Positions 1 to 10,733 of a DNA stretch of 64,000 bases are shown one piece after another. A program made the translations under genes and the position numbers. Each line of letters starts with the position of its first letter. Position 1 is the stretch's first letter. The DNA is from Salegentibacter salarius (lineage in GTDB: Bacteria; Bacteroidota; Bacteroidia; Flavobacteriales; Flavobacteriaceae): positions 1 through 64,000 of the forward strand of contig NZ_FVZF01000005.1 of NCBI RefSeq assembly GCF_900168265.1, in the 5' to 3' direction. The notes under the pieces are model-generated. The model saw nothing but the letters and a program-made list of their open reading frames with translations, did no database searches and was not told the origin of the DNA.

Positions 1-46
1 ACGTTGGGCACAATTCTCCAAATGAAGAAACTTCATTAATTTCTTC

Positions 47-144
47 GGCTAACGTCAAGGAAAAGGATAGAGAAAAGAGGAAATTAGTAAAAGAGTGAAA
101 AAATACAACTAATTGAAAATCAATAATAAAATTTGACGTTAGTC
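47..144 (+). repeat. Divergent attC-like site nested in cassette 1
   Basis: Ends are inverted repeats, GGCTAACGTCAA (47-58) and TTGACGTTAGTC (133-144), 11 of 12 matching. The right end reads GACGTT followed by AGTCAGAAT, the same GTT-N7-AT layout that opens the other cassettes, but the inner sequence is purine-rich and unlike the main family. Its flanks (leader 3-53 and bases 130-149) recur around the IS110 element at 8312-8363 and 9972-9991. Confidence 0.5.
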
Positions 145-164
145 AGAATTAAAAACAACAAAAA

Positions 165-647
165 ATGAAGATTAAAGCCTTTATTATTTCCCTTACCCTG
201 ACAATTATTTCTTTTTGTGAATCCTACGGACAAGAAGGAAATTTAAATGATGTTGAATATACCATAATAGCAAAAGGAACGGACTCACCAATCCCCGATC
301 TTCAAATAGTATGTTTCAATAAATATTTCAACAAAGATTATTTACCGAGCGATTTTCGAAAAAAATACAACCTGGACGAAAAACGTCTCTATAAAAAGAA
401 AATGTTAGTTGAACTTTTTCACTCCGACACTGATGGAAAAGGCCTGGACGAAATTGAATTGATAGGAATTCAAGAAAATGATGAGAATCTAATCGTAAAT
501 TACAATGTAATTAACAGCGACACCAAAAATGACGAAGAGAAACTATCACCTTTTTTAATAGTTCAAGTTCCAAAATCAAAGAAAGATATCAAATTCGTCG
601 TAAATGGTTCAGAATTAGGAAAAGGAACTGAGCTCTACGTGGATTAA
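165..647 (+). CDS. Secreted protein of unknown function (cassette 1)
   Basis: A 160-residue exported protein that I do not recognise. Residues 1-22 are a signal peptide: lysines at 2 and 4, a hydrophobic stretch, and a likely cut after SYGQ. The mature part is polar and acidic with no cysteine pairs or repeats. The gene starts 160 bases into its cassette because a leader containing a second attC-like site lies ahead of it. The ATG follows an A-rich run with no Shine-Dalgarno box, usual for Bacteroidota. The stop lies ten bases before site 1. Confidence 0.75.
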   Translation: MKIKAFIISLTLTIISFCESYGQEGNLNDVEYTIIAKGTDSPIPDLQIVCFNKYFNKDYLPSDFRKKYNLDEKRLYKKKMLVELFHSDTDGKGLDEIELIGIQENDENLIVNYNVINSDTKNDEEKLSPFLIVQVPKSKKDIKFVVNGSELGKGTELYVD

Positions 648-8181: not shown

Positions 8182-8193
8182 AAAACGTTTTAC

Positions 8194-8314
8194 AACAACA
8201 TATAAAAACAATGCTTAAATCAGTCTCCAATCGAATCTCTGCGCCAGCTTGCTTAGCGGATTGTCTTGTGGACAAACACGCCCGCCAGCTCGCAAAGTTT
8301 TTATACGGGACGTT
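8194..8314 (+). repeat. attC-like site 12
   Basis: Left junction GTTTTACAAC pairs exactly with the cassette 12 start GTTGTAAAAC. The right end opens cassette 13 with GTTGGCACAC, which does not pair with that cassette's end (see site 13). Confidence 0.92.
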
Positions 8315-8363
8315 GGCACACATTCCCCACATGAAGAAACTCCATTAATTTCTTTGGCTAACG
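8312..8363 (+). repeat. Leader copy shared with cassette 1, interrupted by the IS110 element
   Basis: These 52 bases match bases 3-54 with only a few differences, including the hairpin GAAGAAA...TTTCTTY and the end GGCTAACG. In cassette 1 a purine-rich stretch follows; here the similarity stops at 8364 and resumes at 9972 (AATTTGACGTTAGTCAGAAT), on the far side of the transposase gene. Confidence 0.7.
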
Positions 8364-8602
8364 GGATGCAAAATATCACCTCCTTTATTAAATTTAAGTG
8401 GACTCTATGTGTGGCCGTTTTTTAAATTGGTGCTTGCAATAAAGCCCGTGACACATTCTGGTCGAAATGTAAAAAAGCCCCTGAATTAGTGGTTCAGGAG
8501 CTTGTTGATAATTTCAGTGGTGCCCCTTTTGGAGAGCCCGTTCAGAATATTGTTCAAATCAAAGATACATTTCCTTAGAGTCTTTTTCTAAAATATTTAA
8601 TT
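8364..8602 (+). ncRNA. Candidate bridge RNA region of the IS110 element
   Basis: IS110-group elements encode a structured bridge RNA in the non-coding end before the recombinase. Here the stretch contains a hairpin at 8476-8502 (AAGCCCCTGAA / TTCAGGAGCTT) and G/C-rich loops downstream. Transcript ends and guide loops cannot be fixed by eye. Confidence 0.4.
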
Positions 8603-9971
8603 ATGGGACGAAAAAAGCTTTCAATGGAAATCATTAATCCCAATGCAGCCGGGATTGATGTTGGCAGTCGCTCACACTATGTGGCCGTTGGGCAATTACC
8701 AGGAGATGTAAAGGAATTTGGCGTGTATGCCGAAGAACTTTCGGCACTTGGAGTATGGTTAAAATCTAAAGAGGTTACAACTGTTGCAATGGAGTCCACA
8801 GGTGATTATTGGCAAAACCTGTTTTCGGAGCTGGTTAAACAAGGCTTGGAAGTTGTCCTGGTCAATGGAAAATTCACCAAAAATGCTAAAGGGAAGAAGA
8901 CGGACGTAAAGGATTGTCGCTGGATCCAGCAGCTACATACTCTAGGGCTTCTCTCCGGGAGTTTTCTTCCAGATGAGACCACAGAGAAGCTGCGCACTTA
9001 TTGCAGACAGCGTGGCAACTGGGTAGATCAGGCGGCATCCACCACTCATAAAATGCAGAAGTTTCTCAAGTTCTTAAACTTTAGGCTTGATGTAGTGGTA
9101 AAGGATGTCTGTGGCCTTACAGGACTTGCAATTATTGGTGATATTTGTAAAGGAAATTTAGATCCGGAAAAACTTGCAAAGCACCGGCATTACAACTGTA
9201 GGAAGTCAGAAGAAGAGATAGCCAAAGCATTGCACGGTAACAATAGAGAAGATTTCCTTTTTGGCCTAAAGCAGGAATACGAAACTTACCTGTTTCTGCA
9301 GAAGAAGATTGAGGAATGTGATAAACAGATGGAAAAGTTTATCAATGCAGAGCTCAAAAAGTATCCCGGCAAAAGGGCACTTAAAACCACCGAAAAACCA
9401 TACAAGAGGATCAATAAGAATGCCCCTAAAATTAAAAACCTTAACCAGATAGCCTATCAGTATTTTGAAGGTGTCGATTTATTTACCATAGAAGGCTTAA
9501 GCCACGCTACAGTAGTATCAATAATGAGCGAGATAGGGCCAGAAGGGTTTAAAAAATTTGAATCTGCCAAACACTTTACTTCCTGGCTAAGATTAGCACC
9601 AAACAATAAAATATCCGGAGGAAAAATCTTAAGCCATAGAATACCAAAAGGAAGCAACCGGCTGAAAATTGCTTTTAGACAAGCGGCCAATTCAATAGGA
9701 AATCTGAAAGACACACATCTGTCTAATTTTTTTAAAAGAGTAGCCTACAGGAAAGGTAGGACTGCAGCAGTCTCAGCAACAGCCAGAAAACTTGCGGTAA
9801 TAGTTTGGAACATGATGGTAAAAAAAGTTCCATATCTTCCACCAACTGAATACCTATTCTTGGATCAAAAGCGGAAATTAAAGATGGTGGCAAGGTTAAG
9901 GAAAAATATAGCTAAATTGGAACTCAAACCAGAGGATCTGGGGTTTTCACCAACCTTAGTATCGACCAACT
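8364..9971 (+). mobile_element. IS110-family insertion sequence
   Basis: The element holds one transposase gene (8603-9973) preceded by about 240 non-coding bases, the usual IS110 layout with a long left end. Boundaries are inferred from where similarity to the uninterrupted copy in cassette 1 stops (after base 54, and again before base 130). There are no obvious terminal inverted repeats, as expected for IS110. It lies inside a palindromic attC-like site; IS1111/IS110 relatives are known to target integron attC sites. Confidence 0.65.
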
Positions 9972-9973
9972 AA
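8603..9973 (+). CDS. IS110-family transposase (DEDD recombinase)
   Basis: A 456-residue recombinase. The N-terminal RuvC-like domain has the expected acidic residues: GIDVGS at about 17-22, MESTGDYW at about 63-70 and KTDVKDCRW around residue 100. The C-terminal Tnp_IS116/IS110/IS902 domain (about 300-385) contains FTSWLRLAP and the SGGK serine motif, then GSNRLKIAFRQAANS. The length and order of domains look complete, so the enzyme may be active. It belongs to the same strand as the cassette genes but is an insertion, not cassette cargo. Confidence 0.92.
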   Translation: MGRKKLSMEIINPNAAGIDVGSRSHYVAVGQLPGDVKEFGVYAEELSALGVWLKSKEVTTVAMESTGDYWQNLFSELVKQGLEVVLVNGKFTKNAKGKKTDVKDCRWIQQLHTLGLLSGSFLPDETTEKLRTYCRQRGNWVDQAASTTHKMQKFLKFLNFRLDVVVKDVCGLTGLAIIGDICKGNLDPEKLAKHRHYNCRKSEEEIAKALHGNNREDFLFGLKQEYETYLFLQKKIEECDKQMEKFINAELKKYPGKRALKTTEKPYKRINKNAPKIKNLNQIAYQYFEGVDLFTIEGLSHATVVSIMSEIGPEGFKKFESAKHFTSWLRLAPNNKISGGKILSHRIPKGSNRLKIAFRQAANSIGNLKDTHLSNFFKRVAYRKGRTAAVSATARKLAVIVWNMMVKKVPYLPPTEYLFLDQKRKLKMVARLRKNIAKLELKPEDLGFSPTLVSTN

Positions 9974-10016
9974 TTTGACGTTAGTCAGAATATAAACCAA
10001 CATAACATTTTTTAAA

Positions 10017-10601
10017 TTGAAAAAATTTATAACTTTTTTAGCCATATTCCTTTCTCTCACCTCTTGTGGACAGAAACATCAAGACCACAATCCTGATAAT
10101 AATATTTATTCCAATCAAGAACTGGGTTGGACAATAGAAGTTCCGAAAAATTGGGACGTTATAACACAGACTCAAATTAAAAAATTAGAAGAAATAGGAA
10201 AAGAAACCTCGGACTACGAAATAGATACATCTGGATTGAAATATTTGATCGGTTTCAAAAAAAATATATTTAATTTTTTTCAGTCCTCGTCTGAACACCT
10301 TGACCATCCTGAAAAGTGGGAGTTCTACCAAAAAGGATTAAAAGAAATGGTTTTTAATAACTATGTTTCAAACGGTGTCCAAGTGGATTCGACCGCAACC
10401 AAAATAATAGAGGTGGACGGGCTTGAATTTCAGCATTACAAATTTCGGATTTATAATTCCAAAGGAGAACTTGTTTTAAATCAATTGGTTTACAGTCGTC
10501 TGATAAATAATGAGTCTTTTGGAGTTAACATCAATTATAACAACGAAGCGGATAAAGAAGAAATGTTGAAAGCCTGGTTCGACTCTAAGTTTAGGAAATA
10601 A
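10017..10601 (+). CDS. Lipoprotein with PsbP/DUF1795-like domain (cassette 13)
   Basis: A 194-residue lipoprotein from a TTG start at 10017: signal peptide of 16 residues, lipobox SLTSC, predicted acylation at Cys17. After a short linker, the segment GWTIEVPKNWDVIT opens a domain resembling the PsbP/DUF1795 group of small exported proteins. It follows the IS110 element by 43 bases and shares the GACGTTAGTCAGAAT boundary with cassette 1. Its cassette's right end does not match its left end, so the cassette may be a fusion of two. Confidence 0.72.
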   Translation: MKKFITFLAIFLSLTSCGQKHQDHNPDNNIYSNQELGWTIEVPKNWDVITQTQIKKLEEIGKETSDYEIDTSGLKYLIGFKKNIFNFFQSSSEHLDHPEKWEFYQKGLKEMVFNNYVSNGVQVDSTATKIIEVDGLEFQHYKFRIYNSKGELVLNQLVYSRLINNESFGVNINYNNEADKEEMLKAWFDSKFRK

Positions 10602-10611
10602 TACGTGCTAC

Positions 10612-10733
10612 AACACTGTATAAAAACAATGCTTAAATCAGTCTCGAATCGAAGGTCAGCGCTCGCTTGCAACGCCTGATTGTCCTGCGGACAATCAAGC
10701 TCGCCAGCTCGCACTGTTTTTATACGGGACGTT
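10612..10733 (+). repeat. attC-like site 13
   Basis: Left junction GTGCTACAAC would pair with GTTGTAGCAC, but cassette 13 starts with GTTGGCACAC, so the two ends belong to different original cassettes. The right end opens cassette 14 with GTTGGCAACA. Confidence 0.92.

What the first reader, a model, noticed from the sequence alone, without database searches (positions are those of the whole stretch)
8312..10614. IS110 element inside an attC-like site, in a cassette whose two ends do not match
The leader before the IS (8312-8363) and the 20 bases after it (9972-9991) match cassette 1, where no IS is present, so the insertion point lies within the palindromic site. IS110/IS1111 relatives are known to target attC sites. 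Cassette 13 is also the only early cassette whose ends fail to pair (start GTTGGCACAC, end GTGCTACAAC), as if two cassettes were fused here.
Basis: partly seen in the sequence, partly recalled or inferred. Interest (0 to 1): 0.6.

Follow-up and report, generated by a model that had tools for sequence, protein, structure and literature searches.

The report
RNA-guided IS110 at cassette heads
A jumping gene of the RNA-guided IS110 family sits at the exact inner edge of a gene cassette's recombination site; most of its relatives and shrunken derivatives examined in other Bacteroidota sit at the same kind of spot, and the full-length ones carry a short predicted RNA guide that tends to match it.

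Summary
The 'leader' (8322-8363) and the 20 bases after the IS (9972-9991) are the ends of the IS110 element itself; they recur on relatives in unrelated places. The 'palindrome' GCTAACG/CGTTAGTC is the element's subterminal repeat, not an attC. Cassette 1 is not an empty site: it carries a ~135-bp internally deleted (MITE-like) derivative. In 20 of 23 full-length elements and 8 of 10 MITE ends, CGTT (the attC R' core) lies exactly 11 nt before the element's AT core, so the insertion falls just inside the cassette, beyond its 10-bp paired arm. A bridge-RNA-like structure in the left end has a target loop whose four bases before AT covary with the target (61 of 92; shuffled mean 30.1; 0 of 50,000 reach it). 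Its donor loop matches the right end in 80 of 80 positions. A close copy (Salegentibacter lacus) sits in a glycoside-hydrolase gene without an attC-like arm, but with CGTT and a matching guide: a linear sequence is read, not the hairpin. Cassette 13's ends pair 7/10, the lowest in the array; fusion is possible but unproven.

The parts
8187..8321 (+). attC-like site closing cassette 12, with R' triplet GTT at 8312-8314 and head of cassette 13 (GTTGGCACAC, 8312-8321)
   Evidence: repeated palindromic site in an array of about 29 cassettes; head/tail complementarity
8322..8323 (+). left copy of the AT core
   Evidence: L007 aligned with six homologues lacking the IS leaves a 3-nt deficit when CATTCC..AGAAT is removed; five of the six have AT at that place
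8324..9989 (+). IS110-family element, 1666 bp between cores
   Evidence: ends shared with L007, L058 and relatives in unrelated flanks
8357..8363 (+). left subterminal inverted repeat GCTAACG
   Evidence: conserved in the left-end alignment
8411..8584 (+). predicted bridge RNA region (segment analysed; true RNA ends not known): target loop, then hairpin, then donor loop
   Evidence: consensus structure of 21 sequences with compensatory changes
8451..8456 (+). target guide ACAC + AT; equals the four head bases before the core plus the core (ACAC-AT, 8318-8323)
   Evidence: guide-target covariation 61/92 against 30.1 shuffled, 0 of 50,000
8542..8548 (+). donor guide TCAGA + AT; equals the IS right end TCAGA-AT (9985-9991)
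   Evidence: 80 of 80 positions in 16 elements, shuffled mean 67.6, 0 of 20,000 reach it
8603..9973 (+). DEDD transposase/recombinase, 456 aa
   Evidence: Pfam PF01548, PF02371
9979..9989 (+). right end CGTTAGTCAGA; has the same CGTT-N7-AT form as the target and includes the right subterminal repeat CGTTAGTC
   Evidence: is the left flank of tandem copies L022b and L160b
9990..9991 (+). right copy of the AT core
9992..10614 (+). remainder of cassette 13: small lipoprotein-like ORF (10017-10601) and tail GTGCTACAAC (10605-10614)
   Evidence: no Pfam match; 'lipoprotein-like' judged by eye from the N-terminus
13..149 (+). MITE-like internally deleted relative of the IS in cassette 1 (cores AT 13-14 and 148-149), inside a cassette whose ends pair 10/10 (3-12 and 651-660)
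   Evidence: both IS ends present without transposase or bridge RNA region

Best explanation
This is an IS110-family element that finds its target with a bridge RNA made from its own left end. It inserts at CGTT-N7-AT, which in this array is the R' core of a cassette recombination site plus the AT that usually follows the cassette's 10-bp paired arm. Shown by comparison here: the element's ends, the AT core, the fixed CGTT register, covariation of the four target-guide bases and of the donor guide, the RNA's two-loop structure, and internally deleted derivatives at the same kind of site. Inferred: that the RNA is made and used as in IS621, that a circular intermediate with the RE-AT-LE junction is the donor, that CGTT is read by the recombinase or by another part of the RNA (it lies outside the covarying guide bases and is present in both target and right end), and that the cassette stays excisable with the element inside.
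For: Same ends in unrelated contexts. CGTT exactly 11 nt before the core in 20 of 23 full-length elements and 8 of 10 MITE ends, at most 1 at any other offset from 4 to 59. Empty-site comparison for L007. Target guide 61/92 against 30.1 +/- 4.9. Donor guide 80/80 with four different sequences among 16 elements. Structure with compensatory changes in 21 sequences. Three close relatives (W, L007, L058) each carry a guide that fits their own target better than the others' targets: 4, 4 and 5 of 5 against 0-3. An inverted-repeat arm ends 14-18 nt before the core in 17 of 23 left flanks against 24 of 87 distinct control CGTTRN6AT sites; arm strength p<=0.01 in 8 of 23 against 5 of 87. Cassette tails complementary to the head left of the IS: 3 of 21 exact, 1 of 21 with one mismatch.
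Against: Three of 23 elements do not have CGTT in register: L012 is one base longer, L018 and L064 have no CGTT. L017 and L064 match 0 of 4 guide bases, L018 1 of 4, five more 2 of 4, and only 5 of 23 match 4 of 4. Sliding the guide by 2 also gave a mild excess (34/92 against 22.2; 54 of 50,000). A right target guide could not be shown: mild excesses at offsets 0 and 3 only (180 to 243 of 5,000 shuffles reach them, eight offsets tried). The elements are related, so shuffles overstate independence. The hairpin test is weak site by site: the window's own site has p=0.09 and 15 of 23 flanks do not reach p<=0.01. In 15 of 21 loci no complementary tail was found and in 2 only with two mismatches; several contigs end too soon. 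No empty site was found for cassette 13 itself in 14 other genomes of the genus.
Confidence: 0.88

Rival explanations
1. One reading: the leader and palindrome are cassette sequence (an attC-like site) and the IS jumped into the middle of it.
For: Leader and tail also occur in cassette 1 without a transposase.
Against: The same leader and tail flank the IS in a Salegentibacter glycoside-hydrolase gene and in other cassettes, and MITEs with the same two ends occur in other genera.
Confidence: 0.03
2. No real targeting: the element merely lives in cassette arrays and is carried along with cassettes.
For: Many copies are found in array-like contexts.
Against: Exact 11-nt register beside attC-like sites of unrelated sequence in several genera, the same register in a non-attC gene (L007) and in tandem self-insertions (L022b, L160b), and guide-target covariation.
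Confidence: 0.04
3. Cassette 13 is a chimera: recombination between two IS copies at the heads of two cassettes joined the head of one (GTTGGCACAC) to the body and tail of another (expected head GTTGTAGCAC). This is compatible with the best explanation.
For: Lowest head/tail pairing of the 29 assigned cassettes (7/10). The guide ACAC fits the present head 4/4 and the head predicted from the tail 3/4 (read from the sequences).
Against: Three point changes or a 2-base slip (GTTG.GCAC against GTTGtaGCAC) explain it equally well. No second full-length copy was found in the assembly.
Confidence: 0.35

Closest known systems
IS621 and other IS110-family bridge-RNA elements (PMC11208160, passages read)
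   Same: DEDD recombinase, long left end with a two-loop RNA, left target guide and left donor guide that include the core dinucleotide; target and donor share the core.
   Different: Core AT; only about four target-guide bases covary; an extra CGTT 11 nt before the core is shared by target and right end; subterminal repeat GCTAACG/CGTTAGTC longer than the 2-3 bp described there for IS110-group elements; no right guide demonstrated.
IS1111-attC group (ISKpn4, ISPst6, ISPa25), as described in PMC11187229 (passages read); the Tetu and Holmes paper was not held and the Post and Hall paper was seen only as a citation
   Same: Elements with a target-matching RNA that insert at one end of attC sites of gene cassettes; subterminal inverted repeats.
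   Different: There the non-coding RNA region lies downstream of the transposase gene; here it is upstream. This one is in Bacteroidota, beside cassettes of a recombinase that fails the integron-integrase cut-off, and its insertion point leaves the cassette's paired arm whole. The exact insertion point of the known group was not compared.
ISEc11/ISXne4 natural re-direction (PMC11187229, passages read)
   Same: Related elements with different guides sit in correspondingly different targets.
   Different: Here the guide differences follow the cassette-specific bases of one kind of site instead of a switch to an unrelated target.

Membership tests
IS110 family (bridge-RNA elements) | DEDD N-terminal domain and Transposase_20 C-terminal domain | tested here: met
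IS110 family (bridge-RNA elements) | non-coding RNA with target and donor loops matching target and donor | tested here: met
   by sequence only: for left guides; right guides inconclusive
IS110 family (bridge-RNA elements) | circular intermediate, RNA-dependent insertion | not testable with these tools
   needs experiment; tandem RE-AT-LE junctions seen in L022 and L160
IS1111 group | long RNA-coding region downstream of the transposase | tested here: not met
   the RNA region is upstream (8411-8584); only 16 bp lie between the stop codon and the right core
IS1111 group | subterminal inverted repeats (7-17 bp in PMC11208160; usually 11-13 bp in PMC11187229) | tested here: inconclusive
   GCTAACG/CGTTAGTC is 7-8 bp but lies 33 nt in from the left core
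integron attC (the target) | cassette start GTT.. complementary to the cassette's own end ..AAC around a long palindrome | tested here: met
   window array; elsewhere 4 of 21 IS-bearing loci
integron attC (the target) | acted on by an IntI-type integrase | tested here: not met
   the recombinase beside the array (C46) scores 210.7 bits against TIGR02249, below the cut-off of 265, and the match skips model positions 180-239; hence 'attC-like'. That this recombinase acts on the array is inferred from position

The most novel reading that the evidence does not exclude
A lineage of RNA-guided elements specialised on cassette arrays of a non-IntI, integron-like system in Bacteroidota. It anchors on the invariant CGTT of the recombination site, follows the cassette-specific bases with a fast-changing 4-nt guide, inserts beyond the paired arm so that the cassette stays mobile, and brings a CGTT-bearing right end that mimics the site. 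The elements and their MITEs would thus travel inside cassettes, and the cassette recombinase might even act on the element's right end.
Probability: 0.3. Interest if true: 0.75.

Novelty: new variant of a known kind. Interest (0 to 1): 0.58.

Why it matters
It links two recombination systems: an RNA-guided element and a cassette array. The guide reads bases that differ between cassettes, so arrays are a natural record of how bridge RNA guides change. The family gives a set of related elements with different guides and matching targets, useful for learning the targeting rule (an anchor plus a short guide) and for asking whether a cassette can carry a whole IS.

Tried and rejected
Rejected: attC-like palindrome as the target (it is the IS's own repeat). 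Rejected: the shared leader as a cassette promoter or leader. Tried without success: a right target guide (17 elements, eight offsets); RNAalifold on the whole left end (uninformative; the trimmed region worked); folding z-scores of the left flanks as an attC test (z from -3.9 to +1.6, did not discriminate; replaced by the arm search); an empty cassette 13 (14 other genomes of the genus, only a 30-base match); literature on IS110 with Bacteroidetes integrons (0 papers with all five terms) and on Flavobacteriaceae integrons (3 papers, off the subject by title and abstract start; 16 papers hold at least 3 of 4 terms, 10 listed, none on this by title). These searches cover only the open-licence library, so they do not show that nothing is in print.

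Rows dropped. Of the 21 loci L007-L027 (at least 59% identity) five had no usable left end: L008 lacks it, L011 has other sequence there, L019-L021 start inside it; the other 16 gave 17 left ends, and W, L058, L059, L064, L065 and L089 make 23. L090/L073 (second copy in G125) gave no left end by pattern. Partial or more distant hits (L060-L063, L066-L075, L091-L120) and L028-L056 were not counted. L023 and L065 were added only, so examine 21. The donor-guide count uses 16 of 21: L022a, L022b, L027 and L064 had no right end within reach, and L059's donor loop was not found by the pattern (in the alignment it reads TCGAGAT as its right end does). L089 counts although its right core reads AG. The structure leaves out L064, L022b and L065 and adds L019 and L023. 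The MITE count uses 10 left ends: cassette 1 (counted once; identical copies in C38 and C46) and 9 ends from 8 loci; 47 of the 62 matches were not examined. In one search the script stopped at L022b, its guide was miscalled; it was set by hand from the alignment.

Full report
What is there. The window starts with an array of about 29 small cassettes separated by palindromic sites of roughly 115 bp; most cassette starts (GTT + 7 nt) are complementary to their own ends. Cassette 13 holds a 456-aa DEDD transposase of the IS110 family (PF01548, PF02371).

Where the element ends. They recur also around relatives of the IS in other genomes: L007 (Salegentibacter lacus, 95% protein identity), L058 (G241, 93%) and, less similar, L009, L010, L025 and others. 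So they are the element's ends. In L007 the IS interrupts a gene whose uninterrupted homologue in L076 is a glycoside hydrolase of family 2. Alignment with six homologues without the IS (L076-L081) shows that removing CATTCC...AGAAT leaves three bases too few; five of the six have AT at that place, which fits an element bounded on both sides by an AT core. In the window the cores are 8322-8323 and 9990-9991, with 1666 bp between. GCTAACG (8357-8363) and CGTTAGTC (9979-9986) are subterminal inverted repeats.

Cassette 1 is not an empty site. Window 13-149 has both ends but neither transposase nor RNA region, that is, a MITE-like derivative. Window 1-175 occurs again in C38, and its first 95 bases in C46, at 100% identity. 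Similar derivatives of 93-140 bp occur in G157, G177, G248, G126 and G040.

The target. I listed 23 full-length left ends, found by transposase similarity and by the element's own end, not by the flank (what was dropped is told in Tried and rejected). CGTT stands exactly 11 nt before the core in 20 of 23, and in 8 of 10 MITE ends; no other offset between 4 and 59 has more than one. The exceptions are L012 (12 nt), L018 and L064, and the MITEs L163 (CCTTG) and L164. In the array CGTT is the R' core of the attC-like site. The best inverted-repeat arm ends 14-18 nt before the core in 17 of 23 left flanks, against 24 of 87 distinct control CGTTRN6AT sites; arm strength reaches p<=0.01 in 8 of 23 against 5 of 87 (the first run gave 8 of 21 against 6 of 98, duplicates included). 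The window's own site reached only p=0.09; its identity rests on the array. In the window 25 of 30 heads have AT at the required place, so most cassettes offer the core. Two of the 30 (3193 and the occupied 8312) fit the window element's guide ACAC-AT. In L010, L015 and L024 a tail exactly complementary to the head was found downstream, in L058 with one mismatch (4 of 21; two more with two mismatches, 15 with none). Where both ends are seen, the insertion leaves the cassette's paired arm whole.

The copy in L007 has no attC-like arm (p=0.79) but has CGTTCCCAAAC-AT and the guide AAAC. Tandem copies (L022b; MITE L160b) sit at the right end of another copy, which itself reads CGTTAGTCAGA-AT. So a linear sequence seems to be read, and the right end has the same form as the target.

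The guide RNA. The left end holds a conserved RNA-like region (window 8411-8584) with a target loop, a hairpin and a donor loop. A consensus structure of 21 sequences shows compensatory changes, above all in the apical stem of the donor loop. In the target loop the four bases before AT equal the four target bases before the core in 61 of 92 cells, against 30.1 +/- 4.9 in shuffles, 0 of 50,000 reaching it. Slid registers gave no comparable result, the largest being 34 of 92 at slide 2 (54 of 50,000). Five of 23 match all four bases: W, L007, L058, L022b, L025. L017 and L064 match none. The donor loop matches the five bases before the right core in 80 of 80 cells over 16 elements with four different sequences, 12 of the 16 having the same one. 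No right guide could be shown. Since related elements share guides and targets, the shuffles overstate significance; the trio W/L007/L058 (L007 90% and L058 87% identical to W in DNA), with three different guides that each fit their own target best, is the least affected case.

Cassette 13's ends. Head GTTGGCACAC and tail GTGCTACAAC pair 7/10, or 8 pairs with a TA bulge. Of the 28 other assigned cassettes 20 pair 10/10, 7 pair 9/10 and 1 pairs 8/10. A recombination between two IS copies at two heads would give this, but so would a few mutations.

The array's own recombinase. On C46 a 374-aa tyrosine recombinase ends about 48 nt before the head of the MITE cassette. It passes NF040815 (230.9 against 220) but not the integron-integrase model TIGR02249 (210.7 against 265), whose positions 180-239 find no match. 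I therefore say 'attC-like'. Relatives at E<=1e-70 occur in 41 of 149 sampled family genomes, own genome included. Behind the gene in the 20 loci looked at, a GTT head-like sequence was seen in each and a short palindrome in front of it in most, both judged by eye; the strict pattern CGTTRN6AT was found in 6 of 20. PMC9024848 (passages) reports complete integrons in Bacteroidetes proper only for Salinibacter ruber, beside those of Chlorobi and Ignavibacteriae.

Known background. Bridge RNAs (PMC11208160) and seekRNAs (PMC11187229), passages read, describe RNA-guided targeting in IS110/IS1111 elements and IS1111 elements that target one end of attC sites. The present element differs in group (RNA upstream of the gene), in host phylum, in its CGTT anchor shared by target and right end, and in its MITEs. 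I call it a new variant of a known kind.

Noticed in passing
G000:C46 (L002:143-1267, minus strand): Array-adjacent tyrosine recombinase below the cut-off of the integron-integrase model and lacking its middle part; relatives in 41 of 149 family genomes; in 20 loci looked at a GTT head-like sequence follows the gene, in most behind a short palindrome, by eye. Looks like a widespread non-canonical integron in Flavobacteriaceae.
   Followed up: partly
window 1-24313: Cassette starts and ends pair over 10 bp (not 7) in most cassettes, and 25 of 30 heads have AT directly after the 10 bp.
   Followed up: partly
C10:1-175, C38:614-788, C46:1-95: The MITE-bearing cassette start is present three times at 100% identity, once next to the recombinase gene; real duplication or assembly repeat cannot be told apart.
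   Followed up: no
L022:1027-2146 and following; L160: Tandem copies of the IS and of a MITE, the second inserted at the right end of the first.
   Followed up: partly
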